A stretch of 64,000 nucleotides of DNA. It comes from Actinobacillus indolicus. GTDB lineage: Bacteria; Pseudomonadota; Gammaproteobacteria; Enterobacterales; Pasteurellaceae. Made by a program: the position numbers and the translations under genes. Location: NCBI RefSeq assembly GCF_901764975.1, contig NZ_CABFKH010000010.1, forward strand, positions 1 to 64,000, in the 5' to 3' direction. The notes beneath the pieces are model-generated. The model did no database searches. It saw only the letters and a list, made by a program, of their open reading frames with translations, and was not told the origin of the DNA. This document shows positions 8,085-21,720 of this stretch, piece by piece; within the stretch, counting starts at the first letter, position 1, and every line of letters starts with the position of its first letter.

Positions 8085-9605
8085 TTATTCTAATTTTTGT
8101 AGATTGGATAGAAGTTGTTCTATTTTAGCTACAATACGATGTTGTTCATTTAGAGGAGGTAAAGGAATAATAAATTCTCTTAGAAATGATAAGGAAATAA
8201 ATGATTGCACTCCACCTGAAGCTACATTTTTCATTTCATTTTGATAAAAAGAAAGAACATAGAATATATAATCCATATTTGTTTGTTTTATATAGGGTTT
8301 AAATAAAGCAACATTCTTAATACTAAATTCTAATTCTTTTTTTACTAAAACAGGATTTCCAATACTCCCAATCATTGCAAATAAAATATCGCCAACATTT
8401 ACTTTGGAACGCAGAGAAATAGCTAAATGATCTTCTCTTGAAATGAATTTTACATTTGAAAAATCTAGATTTCCATTAACTAAATTTTTACTTGTAACTA
8501 ATGGATAACCTTTTTCCACATATTTAGGTGTATCATGTGTTCCATCTCTAACATCTAAATAGTTTCCCAACCTAACCCAACACCAACTTTCAGGAATCTC
8601 AAACGGTATTTCATCAGCGATACAATTCTCAACACCGTCTTTGATCTCATACGCTAAATTATCACGAATAATAATTTCAGAACTGTGCTTTGGTTTCTTT
8701 AATTTTTTCTCCGAAATCAAGCGTGTTTTTTCCGCTTGAATACGTTTCAGTAATTCACTGGCGGGCTCATCCGTTGGAAGTTGCTCTGTTAGTTTGCCCT
8801 GAATTGCAGCTTGTAAAATAGATTTTTTAAGTTGTTCAGGGAAATTTTTATTTAATGCGGTAAGTTGTTGTTCCTTTTGATCGTATTGTTCGATAAAGGG
8901 TAATAGCTCTTCAATTTTTGCAACAATGCGGTGTTGTTCGTTTAATGGGGGAAGTGGAAGTATTAAATCTTTTAATGAGCTTAAATAAATCCCTTTCTGT
9001 GCGGTTCCTTTACTACTTAAATTTAGTAAATCTAGTAAAAATGCTGATTGCAAAACATAGCTGAGATATTCAGAATACACTTGAATTGGTTTTAAAACTG
9101 CAACACTTCTCTGCAGAGCAAATTTATCATTTGATTTAACAATAGCTGTTCTACCTATTGTACCAACAATAGTTAATAGAATGTCATTTAGTTGAATATC
9201 TGTTCTTTTATTTTCAATTTCCCATTGTTCTTCTGATACCCAACGAGAAGCTGATTCTAGTTGAATTTTTTCATCAAAAATATTTGTTGCACTTAGAATA
9301 GGAATCCCTGATAGATTATTTGGTGGTGGATTATGTGAACCATCTGTAATTTTCGATGTAATTTCATCGAGAGTTGCCCAAACCCAACTCTCAGGAATAT
9401 CAAACGGTGGCTCGATCTTCGAATAAGGGGCTTTATCGGCAGATTTTTTGCTTTTTTTGATTTTGCCTTCTGCGATCAAGCGGTCTTTTTCTGCCTGAAT
9501 TTTGCAGAGTAATTCACTGGCAGGTTCATCATTAGGATCTTGTGGTACAAGTTTTCCAGAAATGGCTAATTGTAAAATAGCATTTTTTAATTGTTGGGCT
9601 TTCAT
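8085..9605 (-). CDS. hsdS: Type I restriction specificity subunit HsdS (expressed copy)
   Basis: DNA-recognition subunit of the type I complex, 506 residues. Layout: N-terminal conserved segment 1-70, TRD1 about 71-219, central conserved/coiled-coil spacer 220-345 (EQYDQKEQQLTALNKNFPEQ), TRD2 about 346-480, C-terminal conserved segment 481-506 (PLPPLNEQHRIVAKIEQLL). Start overlaps the rhuM stop by four bases. Target sequence cannot be read from the protein. Parts of TRD1's border and the whole spacer are repeated in inverted orientation in the silent cassette, so the sequence seen is probably only one of several alleles in the population. Confidence 0.95.
   Translation of the reverse strand: MKAQQLKNAILQLAISGKLVPQDPNDEPASELLCKIQAEKDRLIAEGKIKKSKKSADKAPYSKIEPPFDIPESWVWATLDEITSKITDGSHNPPPNNLSGIPILSATNIFDEKIQLESASRWVSEEQWEIENKRTDIQLNDILLTIVGTIGRTAIVKSNDKFALQRSVAVLKPIQVYSEYLSYVLQSAFLLDLLNLSSKGTAQKGIYLSSLKDLILPLPPLNEQHRIVAKIEELLPFIEQYDQKEQQLTALNKNFPEQLKKSILQAAIQGKLTEQLPTDEPASELLKRIQAEKTRLISEKKLKKPKHSSEIIIRDNLAYEIKDGVENCIADEIPFEIPESWCWVRLGNYLDVRDGTHDTPKYVEKGYPLVTSKNLVNGNLDFSNVKFISREDHLAISLRSKVNVGDILFAMIGSIGNPVLVKKELEFSIKNVALFKPYIKQTNMDYIFYVLSFYQNEMKNVASGGVQSFISLSFLREFIIPLPPLNEQHRIVAKIEQLLSNLQKLE
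8566..8953 (-). repeat. Central inverted repeat, expressed hsdS
   Basis: Partner of 6316-6700, covering the HsdS central conserved region. Identity is high but not complete, which suggests recombination is either recent or acts on a short core inside the repeat. Confidence 0.88.
9377..9435 (-). repeat. Outer inverted repeat, expressed hsdS
   Basis: Partner of 5826-5884 at the TRD1 border of the expressed copy. Exchange here would flip the whole segment, including the recombinase gene and both TRDs. Confidence 0.85.
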
Positions 9606-10597
9606 TTTTTATTTTTTACCTGTTTGCTTAATTGCTCAATAGCAATTAAATCTTCTTCGTCTGCTTGTTTCGCTAATATTTCACGCCGTTTTTGTTTAAA
9701 AACAGTATATTGTTGATCAGTAAATTCGATCATTTGCTGACGTGAACGAGAGCCACTCCCTGATAAAACTGTAAATCCATTATCTTCAATAATGCTATCG
9801 ATACGATTTCTCCAAAAACTCAGTGTTAGATCTTGACGATTTTTAGCTCTTAATTCTGCACTTTCTAGAAAAATTACGGTAAGTCGATTGAGCGTATCGA
9901 TTTCATCTTCGTTTAAATAATTCTTTGAAACAATAATGTCAGCTTTTAATACTCGTTCACCGCTCCAACTTGTTAGCCCCATATTCGGTTTAGCCGCATC
10001 AGCTCTTAGGCAAATAAGTTCCGCAGCGGTCTGTTTTGTAACAGCATAAATTAATTTGTTTTGTGCTTCTGCAAAAAACATTTCCGTAGCTTTATCCGTC
10101 TTATCGTAGTCGCTAGATAATTTAAAAAGCTCGCGGACTTTTTGATAAAAACGCATTTCACTAGCTCGAATATCTCGAATACGTTCAAGTAATTCATCAA
10201 AATGATCCACTCGCCCCTTTGGATTTTTTAAGCGTTCATCATCAATTAAGAAACCTTTTTCAAGATAGTGCCGTAAACTGGTATTTGCCCAACGGCGGAA
10301 TTGGGTACCTCTAGGGCTACGAACCCGAAATCCAACAGCAAGAATCATTGATAAAGCATAATGTTTTACTTGGTAAGTTTTACCATCATCAGCAGTTATA
10401 AAGAAATTCTTTATAACTGAAACTTCATCTAACTCTTTGTCTTGTAAAATATTTTTTATATGCAAGCCTATATTTTGAACAGAGGTATCAAAAAGCTCAG
10501 CTAGCTGGTTTTGCGACAGCCACACATCGTCATCACTTGCAAAAAGTGAAACTTTGGATTTTCCATCTTCGGTGTTATAAATGATTAAATCACTCAT
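9602..10597 (-). CDS. rhuM: RhuM-family protein in hsd operon
   Basis: A 331-residue member of the RhuM (virulence RhuM) family, first named in a Salmonella pathogenicity island. The N-terminal part (about 1-120; VWLSQNQLAELFDTSVQNI and the later FRRWANTSLRHYLEKGF) looks like a DNA-binding or Bro/KilA-like module. The C-terminal half is helical. It lies 8 bases after hsdM and overlaps hsdS by 4, so it is translated with the restriction genes. RhuM genes recur between hsdM and hsdS in many type I loci; the molecular function is not established. Confidence 0.88.
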   Translation of the reverse strand: MSDLIIYNTEDGKSKVSLFASDDDVWLSQNQLAELFDTSVQNIGLHIKNILQDKELDEVSVIKNFFITADDGKTYQVKHYALSMILAVGFRVRSPRGTQFRRWANTSLRHYLEKGFLIDDERLKNPKGRVDHFDELLERIRDIRASEMRFYQKVRELFKLSSDYDKTDKATEMFFAEAQNKLIYAVTKQTAAELICLRADAAKPNMGLTSWSGERVLKADIIVSKNYLNEDEIDTLNRLTVIFLESAELRAKNRQDLTLSFWRNRIDSIIEDNGFTVLSGSGSRSRQQMIEFTDQQYTVFKQKRREILAKQADEEDLIAIEQLSKQVKNKK

Positions 10598-17339: not shown

Positions 17340-18518
17340 TTAAGCTAATCCCAACGCATATTTCAACGCCTGTTTTTTCAACGGCGTTGCACGCTCCGCC
17401 ACAATTAACGCAACATTACGCGCGACTTTCACGGGTAATAAATCTGTTTTAAAGGTTTTATAGAATACGTCCATTCCTGTTTGCATTAACAGATTATCGG
17501 GCTTACGTTTTTGTTCGTAACCTTTTAACACCGCTTCATCTGCAAAATTCCGCCCTTTTTCGACCGCTTGTTCTATCACTTCAAGCAAGGCTTTCACATC
17601 TTTAAAACCGAGATTTACCCCCTGCCCTGCCAGTGGATTAATCGTGTGAGCAGAATCTCCAACTAAGACAATCCCATTTCGCACATAGCTTTGGGCGTGC
17701 TGACGTATGAGCGGAAAACTCCCGTGAGCGGTCACTTCAACCTTGCCTAAACGACTCGGAAAATGGCTCTGAATCTCTGCACTCAGTTTCTCTTTGCTCA
17801 TCTGTTGCAGTTGAGCAATGCGTTGTGGCGAATCATACCAAGCTACACAACCGTTATGCTCAAGTAACGGTAAAAAGGCCCTTGGACCGCTTTCAAAGAA
17901 CTGTTGCCAAGTGACACTCTGTTGCGGTAGCTCGGTTTTGACTACGGCAAGTAGACAATGTTGGCGATATTGCCAGCTCGTCAAACCGATGCCAGACCAG
18001 CGACGCACAAGGGAATTTGCACCATCACAGGCAATCAATAGCGGTGAGGAAAACGCCTGCTGATTCAGCTCGACCGTCCAAATACCGTTCTCATCACGAT
18101 TTGCAGAAATCTGCTCAAAACCGACCGCTTGCTGACAGTTCGGATATTGTGCCAACGCTTGCCAAAGTCCAAGCTGAATTATGTTGTTTTCCACCATATA
18201 ACCCAACTTATCTAAGCCAAGATCATTGGCGTGAAAAGCGGTATTAAAACCATCGATTTCCCAAGTTTCTAAGCCGTCATAAGGACAAACTCTCATCGCT
18301 TCAATCGCCTGCCACGCCCCTAATTTCTCCAACAACGCAACGGAAGCCACACTAATCGCCGAAATTCGCACATCATAAGGTGCATTTGGATCAAATGTCG
18401 GCAACGGATTTTTCTCAATCAGCACAACCTTTAGCCCCAGCTTTGCCAACCCTAACGCTGTCGCCGCCCCGACCATTCCGCCACCAATTACAATCACATC
18501 TTGTTGAGCCATCGTCAT
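17340..18518 (-). CDS. FAD-dependent ubiquinone biosynthesis hydroxylase (UbiH/UbiF/VisC family)
   Basis: Flavoprotein monooxygenase, 392 residues, hydroxylating the ring of a ubiquinone precursor. Dinucleotide fold VIGGGMVGAATALGLAKLG at the N-terminus, DGANSLVRRWSGI in the middle, and LVGDSAHTINPLAGQGVNLG about 285-305 are the three family motifs. The segment VCPYDGLETWE resembles UbiF/VisC more than UbiH, but position on the ring cannot be decided here. A second ATG at 18512 has better spacing from the AGAGG site. Confidence 0.88.
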   Translation of the reverse strand: MTMAQQDVIVIGGGMVGAATALGLAKLGLKVVLIEKNPLPTFDPNAPYDVRISAISVASVALLEKLGAWQAIEAMRVCPYDGLETWEIDGFNTAFHANDLGLDKLGYMVENNIIQLGLWQALAQYPNCQQAVGFEQISANRDENGIWTVELNQQAFSSPLLIACDGANSLVRRWSGIGLTSWQYRQHCLLAVVKTELPQQSVTWQQFFESGPRAFLPLLEHNGCVAWYDSPQRIAQLQQMSKEKLSAEIQSHFPSRLGKVEVTAHGSFPLIRQHAQSYVRNGIVLVGDSAHTINPLAGQGVNLGFKDVKALLEVIEQAVEKGRNFADEAVLKGYEQKRKPDNLLMQTGMDVFYKTFKTDLLPVKVARNVALIVAERATPLKKQALKYALGLA

Positions 18519-18585: not shown

Positions 18586-18608
18586 TTTTTGTGACACTCA
18601 TCGAAAAA
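18586..18608 (+). promoter_or_regulatory. CRP/CRP-S-like box 1, upstream of RelE-type toxin
   Basis: TGTGA, six bases, TCGAA, flanked by T-run and A-run, 23 bases in all and differing by one base from boxes at 19360 and 20100. The left half is a canonical CRP half-site; the TCG right half resembles the Sxy-dependent CRP-S sites of Pasteurellaceae competence genes. A TAACAAT -10 candidate follows at about 18644. The toxin ATG is 118 bases downstream. Confidence 0.6.
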
Positions 18609-18725
18609 TGATTTTCTCTCACTTGCGTTTCAACCATAAAGATTAACAATCCAATGATTACTTCACAGCGTTGAAGTTCACTTGTCATTTTGTATTGAAA
18701 ACATTACAATCATAGAAAATCAATT

Positions 18726-19031
18726 ATGTACATCATTGAACAAACTGAGACCTTTAAATTATGGCTAAATGAACTCAAAGATCCTATTGCCAAAATTACC
18801 ATTATCCGTCGCCTAGAACGAGCAAAAAATGGACACTTTGGAGATCATAAATCGCTAGGTGACGGCATTTATGAAATGCGATTGATGATCAACAAAGGCT
18901 ACCGTATCTACTATGCAAGAAAAGGGGAAATCATCTATCTCATTATCAACGGCGGACACAAAGACAGCCAAGAGCAAGATATCGCCATAGCAAAAAGATT
19001 TTGGCAACAATATCAACTTGAACAGGAATAA
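18726..19031 (+). CDS. RelE/HigB-like toxin of a type II toxin-antitoxin pair
   Basis: Toxin of 101 residues in the RelE/ParE killer-protein family; such toxins usually cleave mRNA on ribosomes. Visible: KLWLNELKDPIAKITIIRRLERAKNGHFGDHKSLGDGIYEMR core with RIYYARKG and LIINGGHKDSQEQDI at the C-terminus, both typical. The antitoxin gene follows 6 bases later (toxin first, the HigBA order). The same family pair in H. influenzae (HI0660/HI0659) is competence-induced through a CRP-S site, which fits the box upstream here. Confidence 0.9.
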   Translation: MYIIEQTETFKLWLNELKDPIAKITIIRRLERAKNGHFGDHKSLGDGIYEMRLMINKGYRIYYARKGEIIYLIINGGHKDSQEQDIAIAKRFWQQYQLEQE

Positions 19032-19037
19032 AATAAG

Positions 19038-19343
19038 ATGAAAGATAAATCGTTTAACGGACAAATATCAACGTTCGATACGGCAGAATATCTCAATAAT
19101 GATGAACTTATCGCACTTTATCTATCAGAAGTGCTAAAAGACGGCGATGAAGCCGAGTTTATTCAAGCGTTAAATACCATTGCTCGTGCAAAAGGGATGA
19201 ATGAATTAGCTAAAAAAGCCAATATCGGCAGAGAAAGTTTATATCAAACACTTTCAAGCAAAAAACCACGTTTTGAAACCATTGTGAAAATTCTTTCAGC
19301 ATTAAATATTGAGCTAGTGCCTAAGGTTAAAACTACCCAATAG
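19038..19343 (+). CDS. Helix-turn-helix antitoxin of the RelE-type pair
   Basis: Antitoxin of 101 residues from the addiction-module antidote family, expected to neutralise the preceding toxin and repress the pair. The N-terminal 30 residues (STFDTAEYLNNDELIALYL) likely contact the toxin. The C-terminal half is an XRE helix-turn-helix (ELAKKANIGRESLYQTLS, then FETIVKILSALNIELVP). Ribosome site AGGAATAAAATAAG precedes the ATG. Confidence 0.9.
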   Translation: MKDKSFNGQISTFDTAEYLNNDELIALYLSEVLKDGDEAEFIQALNTIARAKGMNELAKKANIGRESLYQTLSSKKPRFETIVKILSALNIELVPKVKTTQ

Positions 19344-19359
19344 CTTTATCTTTTCACGA

Positions 19360-19382
19360 TTTTTGTGACACTCGTCGAAAAA
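19360..19382 (+). promoter_or_regulatory. CRP/CRP-S-like box 2, upstream of hicAB
   Basis: Same 23-base sequence as the comM box (identical at every position). A TAATAT -10 candidate starts 63 bases from the box start at 19423-19428, almost the same geometry as at comM (65 bases). hicA starts at 19484. Confidence 0.6.
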
Positions 19383-19483
19383 CCACAATATTAAAATTGC
19401 GTTCCCTGTAACCATCTCACAATAATATGATTTCATCACATACATTGACTTCATTATTTAAAGTCATAAAATAGGGAAATCAA

Positions 19484-19759
19484 ATGCGAAAGAAACATCA
19501 GCAAACACTTTATGCTATTTTCGCAACGCCAACATCATCTAATATCAAATGGAAAGAGATAGAATCTCTGATTGAAGGGTTAGGTGGTGAGATTATTCAA
19601 GGTGAAGGCTCTAGAGTACGATTTAAACTAAACAATAGCATTGCTCGTTTTCATCGTCCACACCCATCACCAGATACGGATAAGGGTGCTATCGCAAACT
19701 TGCGTGAATGGCTTACTAAAATAGGAATTACTCCAAATGGCAACAAAACAACAACCTAA
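19484..19759 (+). CDS. hicA: HicA-family toxin
   Basis: HicA mRNA interferase, 91 residues. The double-stranded RNA-binding-like fold is recognisable from WKEIESLIEGLGGEIIQGEGSRVRF and FHRPHPS, the latter with the catalytic His of the family, followed by the terminal LREWLTKIGI helix. The gene overlaps hicB by 23 bases, so synthesis of the two is coupled. It is preceded by a box identical to that of comM. Confidence 0.9.
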   Translation: MRKKHQQTLYAIFATPTSSNIKWKEIESLIEGLGGEIIQGEGSRVRFKLNNSIARFHRPHPSPDTDKGAIANLREWLTKIGITPNGNKTTT

Positions 19760-20096
19760 TATTATCTATATTGATCATTATCCTGCTATTGTCAGCTATA
19801 TACCTGAATTGAAGATGTTTCGTGGGAAATTTCTCAATACGACGGGATATTGTGATTTCATTGCCGATAGCGTAGTTGGCTTATATCAAGAAGGAAAAAT
19901 CTCTCTAGATGAATATCTAGCAGACTGCCGTGAAAACGGTATTGTCGCATTTGAGCAAGAAAAGCAAAAAACTTTTACATTACGCTACGATGAAACTTTA
20001 TCAGAACTCGTTACTCAACAGGCTAAAGCACGTGGGATTTCAATTAATCACTTGATCATTGAAGCCATTGAACAGCATTTAGCACAACGACTTTAA
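19737..20096 (+). CDS. hicB: HicB-family antitoxin
   Basis: Antitoxin of 119 residues. The N-terminal partial RNase H-like fold (YPAIVSYIPELKMFRGKFLNTTGYCDF) binds HicA, and the C-terminal ribbon-helix-helix (TLRYDETLSELVTQQAKARGISINHLIIEAI) binds the operator. Together with hicA it forms the second toxin-antitoxin pair in this 1.4-kb stretch. Confidence 0.9.
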   Translation: MATKQQPNIIYIDHYPAIVSYIPELKMFRGKFLNTTGYCDFIADSVVGLYQEGKISLDEYLADCRENGIVAFEQEKQKTFTLRYDETLSELVTQQAKARGISINHLIIEAIEQHLAQRL

Positions 20097-20099
20097 CTA

Positions 20100-20122
20100 T
20101 TTTTGTGACACTCGTCGAAAAA
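20100..20122 (+). promoter_or_regulatory. CRP/CRP-S-like box 3, upstream of comM
   Basis: Third copy of the box, 66 bases before the comM start, with TAATAT at 20165-20170 as -10 candidate. comM belongs to the Sxy/CRP competence regulon of H. influenzae, so this copy supports reading all three as CRP-S-type sites. Confidence 0.7.
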
Positions 20123-20187: not shown

Positions 20188-21720
20188 ATGTCTTTAGCGA
20201 TTATTTACAGCCGAGCATCTATCGGCGTTGAAGCCCCATTAGTGACTATTGAAGTGCATATCAGTGGCGGAAGCCCTGGGCTTACTTTGGTCGGATTACC
20301 TGAGAAAAGCGTCAAAGAAGCACAGGATAGGGTGCGAAGTGCCTTGATGAATGCCAATTTTGATTACCCTGCCAGACGTATTACTATTAACCTTGCCCCT
20401 GCCGATCTCCCCAAAGAAGGTGGACGTTTTGATTTACCCATTGCCATCGGGATTTTAGCGGCATCAGGGCAAATTGACAGCGATAAACTCAAACGGATTG
20501 AACTGCTTGGAGAGCTATCTTTGACAGGGCATTTGCGTGGGGTACACGGTGCAATTCCTGCAGTGTTGGCAGCAAGCAAAGCAAAACGGGAAATTATCGT
20601 CCCACAACAAAATGCCAATGAAGTTTCTTTGGTTTCCAATACCCAAACCTATTGTGCTTCAACCTTGTTACAGGTCGTCAATTTTCTCAACAATCGCGAT
20701 CAACTACCGATAGCTCAACAGCTTTCGCAAAATATTGCCGAAAACAGACCGCTCGTCAGCCGTGATTTAACCGATATTATTGGGCAACATCACGCCAAAC
20801 GGGCATTAATTATTGCCGCCAGCGGTCAGCATAATCTGCTGTTCTTAGGTCCACCTGGCACAGGTAAAACAATGCTTGCCAGTCGCCTTGCCGATCTGTT
20901 GCCTGAAATGGAAGATGATGAAGCGATTGAAACAGCATCTGTCACCAGTCTTGTACAAAATGAACTCAATTTCCAAAACTGGAAAAAACGCCCTTTTCGC
21001 TCCCCACATCACAGTGCATCAATGGTTGCGTTGGTCGGTGGTGGCTCGATCCCAAAACCCGGGGAAATATCACTGGCACACAATGGCGTGTTGTTTTTGG
21101 ACGAATTACCCGAATTTGAACGGAAAGTGTTAGACGCATTACGCCAGCCGTTAGAATCGGGAGAAATCATTATTTCCAGAGCCAATGCCAAGGTGCAGTT
21201 CCCTGCTCGTTTTCAACTAATTGCCGCAATGAACCCAAGCCCGACAGGGCATTATCAAGGAACGCACAATCGAACGTCGCCACAACAGTTAATGCGTTAT
21301 CTCAACCGCTTATCAGGTCCTTTTCTCGACCGCTTCGATCTCTCGATTGAAGTGCCGTTACTGCCACAAGGTGCATTGCAAAATAATACCGATCAACGTG
21401 GTGAAACCACCGAACAGGCTCGCAAGCGGGTACTTGAAGCAAGACATTTGCAATTTAACCGTCGGGGGAAAATCAATGCTCAACTGACGACCAAAGAGAT
21501 TGAACAAGATTGCAAACTGGCTGATCGAGATGCGTTATTTTTAGAAAATGCCTTAACGAAGCTGGGGCTGTCGGTACGAGCTTATCACCGTATTCTCAAA
21601 GTTTCTCGCACCATCGCTGACTTGGCTGGAGAAGCCCAAATCCAACAACCTCATCTGGCTGAAGCTTTAGGCTATCGGGCAATGGATCGTTTGTTACAAA
21701 GGTTACAAGGGGAAAGTTAG
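20188..21720 (+). CDS. comM: Competence branch-migration helicase ComM
   Basis: Mg-chelatase-like AAA+ ATPase (YifB family), 510 residues, that extends heteroduplex during natural transformation. N-terminal Lon-like/ChlI domain about 1-170, Walker A GPPGTGKTM at 221-229, PFRSPHHSASMVALVGGG and LAHNGVLFLDELPEF (Walker B) next, sensor region AAMNPSPTGHY, and a C-terminal helical lid. AAAAGAGGAAAAAGT precedes the ATG. Its 3' end overlaps convergent holB by four bases. Confidence 0.96.
   Translation: MSLAIIYSRASIGVEAPLVTIEVHISGGSPGLTLVGLPEKSVKEAQDRVRSALMNANFDYPARRITINLAPADLPKEGGRFDLPIAIGILAASGQIDSDKLKRIELLGELSLTGHLRGVHGAIPAVLAASKAKREIIVPQQNANEVSLVSNTQTYCASTLLQVVNFLNNRDQLPIAQQLSQNIAENRPLVSRDLTDIIGQHHAKRALIIAASGQHNLLFLGPPGTGKTMLASRLADLLPEMEDDEAIETASVTSLVQNELNFQNWKKRPFRSPHHSASMVALVGGGSIPKPGEISLAHNGVLFLDELPEFERKVLDALRQPLESGEIIISRANAKVQFPARFQLIAAMNPSPTGHYQGTHNRTSPQQLMRYLNRLSGPFLDRFDLSIEVPLLPQGALQNNTDQRGETTEQARKRVLEARHLQFNRRGKINAQLTTKEIEQDCKLADRDALFLENALTKLGLSVRAYHRILKVSRTIADLAGEAQIQQPHLAEALGYRAMDRLLQRLQGES

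What the first reader, a model, noticed from the sequence alone, without database searches (positions are those of the whole stretch)
18586..20122. Three near-identical CRP/CRP-S-like boxes before two toxin-antitoxin pairs and comM
Seen: a 23-base box (T-run, TGTGA, six bases, TCGAA, A-run) occurs at 18586, 19360 and 20100. Copies 2 and 3 are identical and copy 1 differs by one base. For copies 2 and 3 a TAATAT hexamer follows at 63 and 65 bases. Known: comM belongs to the Sxy/CRP competence regulon in Pasteurellaceae, and H. influenzae has a competence-induced pair of the same family as the first one here. Inference: both toxin-antitoxin pairs, including hicAB, are competence-regulated with comM. 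The repeat of exactly the box between unrelated cassettes suggests the cassettes were slotted in at a shared promoter sequence.
Basis: partly seen in the sequence, partly recalled or inferred. Interest (0 to 1): 0.82.

Follow-up and report, generated by a model that had tools for sequence, protein, structure and literature searches.

The report
Competence boxes capture toxin-antitoxin cassettes
In a Glaesserella genome two toxin-antitoxin gene pairs sit between three near-identical copies of a DNA box that stands only once before the DNA-uptake gene comM in a sister species; the box is predicted to switch genes on during competence, and similar boxes stand before other toxin genes in related bacteria, so competence likely turns on a set of toxin-antitoxin pairs as well.

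Summary
In detail: the 23-base box is at 18586, 19360 and 20100, with none expected by chance. It matches the CRP-S (Sxy-dependent CRP) sites of the genus: it or a variant precedes sxy, comF, rlmN-pilF2, rec2, radC, dprA, comA, pilA, comN and comM. The published comM site of G. parasuis SC1401 has the same box next to the end of hicB, and comM falls 5.3-fold in a tfoX mutant of that strain.

A sister species has the ubiH-like gene, one box, comM. Its left flank matches the left of box 1, its right flank the right of box 3, so both cassettes lie between box copies. The two cassettes also share promoter sequence beyond the box.

It is not a one-off. Box-like sites lie upstream of 36 of 211 scored toxin genes of four families in related genomes, against 2 of 220 other genes. 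Elsewhere TA pairs sit directly behind comM or rec2, or divergent from comM.

CRP-S control of single TA pairs is known (E. coli hicAB, H. influenzae toxTA). New are the stacked, box-bounded insertion with its empty site and the recurrence across toxin families. Induction itself is untested.

The parts
17340..18518 (-). ubiH/visC-type FAD hydroxylase, left neighbour and left flank of the empty site
18586..18608 (+). box 1, CRP-S-like, 117 bp before the toxin start codon; left flank equals that of the single comM box of G001
18682..18710 (+). candidate second promoter P2 (TTGTCA-17-TACAAT) just before the toxin gene, overlapping a TTGTA...TACAA repeat with counterparts before some related toxins (prediction)
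18726..19031 (+). RelE/ParE-type toxin, TIGR02683 (upstrm_HI1419)
19038..19343 (+). antitoxin, TIGR02684/PF21716 (dnstrm_HI1420)
19360..19382 (+). box 2, CRP-S-like, 16 bp after the antitoxin stop and 101 bp before hicA
19445..19472 (+). candidate P2 (TTGACT-16-TAAAAT) just before hicA, overlapping a TGACTT...AAGTCA repeat with a counterpart in G082 (prediction)
19484..19759 (+). HicA toxin (PF07927), long FHRPHP subfamily
19737..20096 (+). HicB antitoxin (PF05534)
20100..20122 (+). box 3, the comM CRP-S site, 3 bp after the hicB stop and 65 bp before comM; right flank equals that of the empty site
20188..21720 (+). comM (YifB/ComM AAA ATPase)

Best explanation
Three copies of a CRP-S-type box, which stands once before comM in a sister species, here frame two toxin-antitoxin pairs (RelE/ParE-type and HicAB) that likely entered by recombination within the box and are predicted to be switched on together with comM by Sxy and CRP. 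Each unit runs box, predicted promoter P1, candidate promoter P2 with an inverted repeat at the toxin start, toxin, antitoxin. Predicted working: in competence Sxy-CRP drives P1 and both proteins are made; otherwise P2, repressed by the antitoxin, would give antitoxin. That dual-promoter scheme is the published one for E. coli hicAB and H. influenzae toxTA. Shown here: the boxes, the empty site, the shared promoter sequence of the two cassettes, and the recurrence across the family. Inferred: recombination at the box as the insertion route, induction, P2 function and toxicity.
For: Box triplet beyond chance. Same box or variants before sxy, comF, rlmN-pilF2, rec2 and radC, dprA, comA, pilA, comN, a ligase gene (names by eye). 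A CRP-S-like site of 14/17 or more lies before comM in 43 of the 45 family comM loci examined (138 of 140 genomes have comM). Empty site in G001: left flank = left of box 1, right flank = right of box 3; G002 (G. australis) has one box before comM. Sequence downstream of boxes 1 and 2 is alike beyond the box (7 of 1000 shuffles as good), unlike 2 vs 3 (921 of 1000) and 1 vs 3 (245 of 1000). Published SC1401 comM site: CTTTAACTAT + box + CCAACATTTT, the same hicB-end/box/comM joint as here; comM down 5.3-fold without tfoX. Family survey, sites of 15/17 or more: TIGR02683-type toxin 11 of 68, HicA 11 of 83, Gp49 8 of 30, RelE 6 of 30, against 2 of 220 other-gene upstream regions and 4 of 870 and 3 of 412 other windows. 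Spacing to the toxin start 75-122 bp. Other placements: pair divergent from comM around one box (G048), hicAB directly behind comM (G082), pair directly behind rec2 (G001); pair between two near-identical boxes that share sequence with that genome's comM site (G082, L164).
Against: No expression data for either pair. Identical 23-base boxes also occur at unlinked promoters (comM/sxy, rlmN/rec2), so convergence under strong constraint is possible. The left half is TGTGA, as in ordinary CRP sites, so Sxy dependence of boxes 1 and 2 is by analogy with the comM box. Of the toxin genes scored, 175 of 211 have no site of 15/17, and 24 of 29 RhuM-Fic genes have none. The looser pattern is noisy: 63 places in the genome within 2 mismatches against 12 for its mirror image. 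The promoter scan finds as many sites as shuffles (7 vs 7.1), so P2 rests on position and on conservation in some relatives. No TATAAT-like hexamer stands behind box 1. The HicA has GSR where HicA usually carries its catalytic histidine (recalled), so toxicity is not certain.
Confidence: 0.74

Rival explanations
1. The cassettes arrived with their own CRP-S sites, already competence-regulated elsewhere, and landed next to comM by chance; the boxes are alike because CRP-S sites in this genus are strongly constrained or homogenised by gene conversion.
For: Identical boxes at unlinked promoters (rlmN/rec2, sxy/comM). hicAB with its own box sits at other loci in G001, G007, G153 and G080.
Against: Both outer junctions fall inside box copies when compared with G001; P1 sequence of the two unrelated pairs is alike beyond the box; in G082 shared sequence runs past the box at two loci.
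Confidence: 0.3
2. The boxes are ordinary CRP (CRP-N) sites, so the pairs answer to carbon starvation through CRP alone and not to Sxy.
For: Left half TGTGA matches the CRP-N half-site.
Against: The same box is the published comM CRP-S site of G. parasuis, and comM depends on tfoX; ordinary-looking sites in this genome read TGTGA...TCACA and precede, by eye, a PTS gene and a sugar isomerase gene.
Confidence: 0.1
3. Selfish hitch-hiking: the pairs gain nothing from competence and the box is merely a tolerated, tightly shut promoter and a convenient recombination site. This concerns the benefit and is compatible with the mechanism above.
For: H. influenzae toxT is often deleted in nature; shortened toxin and HicA variants are among the database matches (P0129, P0007).
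Against: Recurrence across toxin families and genera suggests selection for this wiring, though a selfish route could also give it.
Confidence: 0.4

Closest known systems
E. coli hicAB with CRP-S promoter P1 and HicB-repressed P2 (Turnbull and Gerdes, not seen; as described in passages of PMC6957337 and PMC11594946)
   Same: HicA before HicB, CRP-S site upstream, candidate antitoxin-operated promoter at the hicA start
   Different: Here the site is an exact copy of the comM box, and the operon sits in front of comM beside a second TA pair
H. influenzae toxTA, HI0660/HI0659 (PMC6957337; passages read)
   Same: RelE/ParE-superfamily toxin first, HTH antitoxin second, CRP-S promoter, second antitoxin-repressed promoter
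   Different: The window pair is TIGR02683/02684, is stacked with hicAB at comM, and has a known empty site. The paper says it is not known how toxTA came under CRP-S control
G. parasuis SC1401 CRP-S set (PMC5809987; passages with Table 3 read)
   Same: Same comM box and flanks; the same or nearly the same sites at rlmN, rec2, comA, comF, pilA, comN
   Different: The 12 genes of that table include no toxin gene, and the passages read do not mention hicB upstream of comM

Membership tests
CRP-S (Sxy-dependent CRP) site | 22-23 bp near-palindrome with T-run and A-run around a CRP core, shared by competence promoters | tested here: met
CRP-S (Sxy-dependent CRP) site | C at positions 6/17 of the core (as stated in PMC5809987) | tested here: inconclusive
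   right half has TCG, left half has TGTGA; the published comM site of the species has the same form
CRP-S (Sxy-dependent CRP) site | transcription needs both Sxy and CRP | not testable with these tools
   only comM is reported tfoX-dependent
TIGR02683/TIGR02684 toxin-antitoxin pair | both proteins above the curated cut-offs, toxin first | tested here: met
   109.7 and 98.5 bits against 62.85 and 53.7
HicAB | HicA (PF07927) followed by HicB (PF05534), above cut-off | tested here: met
   40.8 and 38.7 bits against 27 and 21
HicAB | catalytic histidine in a GSxH motif (recalled) | tested here: not met
   GSR is invariant in the 11 aligned sequences, as are H57 and H60. Filed as HicAB by family model only; that it is toxic like HicA is less certain
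H. influenzae toxTA | orthology to HI0660/HI0659 | not tested
   no named H. influenzae sequence was compared; the window toxin is TIGR02683 and 21 bits to PF05973, below its cut-off of 23.9
dual-promoter TA (CRP-S P1, antitoxin-repressed P2) | second promoter with antitoxin operator at the toxin start | tested here: inconclusive
   candidate promoters and repeats, with counterparts in some relatives; scan not above shuffles

The most novel reading that the evidence does not exclude
CRP-S boxes work as landing pads: short box-to-box recombination lets toxin-antitoxin cassettes enter the competence regulon one after another, leaving a box copy at each joint, so that Pasteurellaceae have built a competence-triggered toxin battery from at least four toxin families (plus RhuM-Fic).
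Probability: 0.35. Interest if true: 0.82.

Novelty: new variant of a known kind. Interest (0 to 1): 0.66.

Why it matters
How toxin-antitoxin pairs come under competence control is stated as unknown in the one detailed study found (PMC6957337, passages read). This locus gives an apparent before-and-after picture: one box in the sister species, three boxes with two cassettes here. The family survey turns two isolated cases into a pattern seen in 12 of 43 genera (my tally over the sites of 15/17 or more; RhuM-Fic included, 10 genera without it and without one weak HicA site). It makes testable whether growth arrest or defence by toxins is a regular part of the competent state, and part of the test can be done on public RNA-seq.

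Tried and rejected
Box as a recombinase site (dif-like or integron-like): set aside on inspection because the same box precedes competence genes genome-wide; no recombinase search was made. 23-base identity as proof of duplication: rejected, since unlinked promoters share identical boxes. dprA-hicA operon in G073: the HicA there is a 46-codon fragment and no HicB-like ORF was seen behind it by eye, so it counts only as a remnant. RhuM-Fic as a general CRP-S toxin: 5 of 29 scored loci have the site (30 were fetched from a longer, capped list, one dropped at a contig edge). Structures by sequence: no match for the RelE-type toxin, two matches at E 0.67-0.76 for HicA, and for HicB one designed repeat protein; no structure was predicted. 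Fixed -10 spacing: TATAAT-like hexamers (5 of 6) gather at offsets 59-68 in 20 TA promoters, but several are close relatives and comM promoters peak at 47 as well as 59-60, so little weight is put on it. Searches treated minus-strand loci as if reoriented; their rows for such loci were discarded and redone.

Counts: TIGR02683-type 68 of 71 matches scored (3 fragments dropped); HicA 83 of 121 listed matches (37 not fetched, 1 not scored); Gp49 30 of 31; RelE 30 of 64. The Gp49 and RelE queries were chosen because the window genome's members have a box; without the window genome those counts are 7 of 29 and 5 of 29. Related species inflate counts within a genus. The scoring pattern was set after seeing sites of this genus. 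Adjacency of TA genes to comM was read by eye from coordinates (3 of 138 genomes with comM).

Full report
The box. The three copies are real and beyond chance. In the 2.1 Mb genome of the window the same pattern within 3 mismatches occurs seven times and its mirror control never. The four other places are upstream of sxy/tfoX (identical, 99 bp before the start, reversed relative to the gene), comF (2 mismatches), rlmN-pilF2 and rec2 (3 mismatches, identical to each other). With the looser pattern TTTTTGYGANNNNNNTCGMAAAA, sites before radC, dprA, comA, a ligase gene, pilA and comN appear (gene names by eye from the translations); that pattern is noisy (63 places within 2 mismatches, mirror control 12). 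G002 is Glaesserella australis (contig match), so the window is Glaesserella, likely G. parasuis because the closest named toxin matches are from that species. Dai et al. list TTTTGTGACACTCGTCGAAAAA as the comM CRP-S site of G. parasuis SC1401, and the same or nearly the same sites for rlmN, rec2, comA, comF, pilA and comN (PMC5809987, passages read). A CRP-S-like site of 14/17 or better lies upstream of comM in 43 of 45 family comM loci examined (138 of 140 genomes have comM).

The empty site. G001, of the same genus with an almost identical ComM, has the ubiH-like gene, one box and comM. Its sequence left of the box continues as the left flank of window box 1 and its sequence right of the box as the right flank of window box 3; the change-over to cassette sequence falls at or within box copies on both sides. 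Box 3 starts 3 bp after the hicB stop, box 2 16 bp after the antitoxin stop. In Table 3 of PMC5809987 the ten bases left of the SC1401 comM site are CTTTAACTAT, which in the window is the end of hicB including its stop; so a second strain has the hicB-box-comM joint. The sequences downstream of boxes 1 and 2 are alike beyond the box (7 of 1000 shuffles as good), those of 2 and 3 and of 1 and 3 are not (921 and 245 of 1000). Two unrelated pairs thus appear to carry related P1 promoters.

The pairs. First pair TIGR02683/TIGR02684; second HicA/HicB. Each has a candidate sigma-70 promoter ending 15 or 11 bases before the toxin start, overlapping a short inverted repeat; similar repeats stand before some related toxins in other genera. 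The promoter scan as such finds no more than shuffles do, so P2 is a prediction by position, conservation and analogy with E. coli hicAB and H. influenzae toxTA. The HicA belongs to a long subfamily with invariant GSR and FHRPHP.

Recurrence. Among 140 family genomes I scored about 330 bp upstream of toxin genes. Sites of 15/17 or more: TIGR02683-type 11 of 68, HicA 11 of 83 (6 of 11 in the window's subfamily, 3 of 42 and 2 of 30 in the others; one of the eleven, L163, looks weak), Gp49 8 of 30, PF06296-type RelE 6 of 30. Controls: 2 of 220 upstream regions of other genes in the same loci, both the same ordinary-looking CRP site, 4 of 870 and 3 of 412 other windows. Fisher for all 36 of 211 against 2 of 220: 4e-10, without correction for relatedness and with the window genome included. 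RhuM-Fic: 5 of 29, and the second copy in the window genome has a box of 16/17 98 bp before its start. In the window genome the one member found of each of the four families has a box, but two of these families were chosen because of it.

Other placements. In G048 a TIGR02683-type pair lies between comM and the ubiH-like gene, divergent from comM, with one box between. In G082 a HicAB with HicA 78% identical to the window's starts 44 bp behind the comM stop. In G001 a TIGR02683-type pair starts 48 bp behind rec2. In G082 another such pair is framed by two boxes that share sequence past the box with each other and with that genome's comM site (L164). In G001, G007 and G153 hicAB with a box follows an ABC-F-type gene (by eye), the box overlapping its stop codon or 6 bp behind it. 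Of 138 genomes with comM, 3 have one of the two window TA families next to it (coordinates, by eye).

Reading. Best supported: the pairs are CRP-S units placed at the comM box, likely by recombination within the box, and predicted to be induced with comM. What the toxins do in competent cells is open; slowing protein synthesis during nucleotide shortage is the suggestion made for toxTA in PMC6957337 (passage read). An A. pleuropneumoniae toxA knockout had normal growth and competence in that paper, which warns against assuming a large effect.

Prior work. Searches (open-licence PMC papers only) found CRP-S control of E. coli hicAB and H. influenzae toxTA; among the listings and the passages read I saw no report of TA pairs stacked at comM or of a family-wide survey. 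Papers outside that library were not seen.

Noticed in passing
G002, G042, G056, G058, G067, G069, G076, G127: comM is split near residues 270-287 with 11-34 kb between the halves on one contig: a recurrent integration point in the family, G. australis included.
   Followed up: partly
L031 1501-1523 (G000:C7:52075): The comM box stands exactly, in reverse orientation, 99 bp before sxy; a one-base variant does so in G. australis (L051). Possible Sxy autoregulation.
   Followed up: no
L164 1914-1936 (G082:C20): The second box, downstream of the TA pair, precedes a small unknown ORF (62 codons) that may be a further competence-regulated gene.
   Followed up: no
L044 1501-1523 (G002:C8:4745): An exact copy of the comM box in G. 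australis lies 5 bp behind an ABC-F-type gene and before a short ORF that looks like a RhuM fragment (by eye).
   Followed up: partly
L048/L050 1501-1523 (G001): Box variant before an RNase H-like gene (by eye); the region is present twice, perhaps overlapping contig ends.
   Followed up: no
L118 1501-1523 (G000:C4): CRP-S-like site before a 99-aa coiled-coil protein (weak CCDC90-like match, below cut-off).
   Followed up: no
window 9602-10597 (-): RhuM-like gene between type I restriction-modification genes (by eye), without a box in 330 bp upstream.
   Followed up: partly
P0129 and P0007: Shortened variants of the toxin and of HicA among database matches, reminiscent of natural toxT deletions in H. 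influenzae.
   Followed up: no
G000:C7:45227: dprA here has a perfect match to the CRP-S-like pattern 73 bp upstream, whereas PMC5809987 reports only a poor site for SC1401.
   Followed up: no
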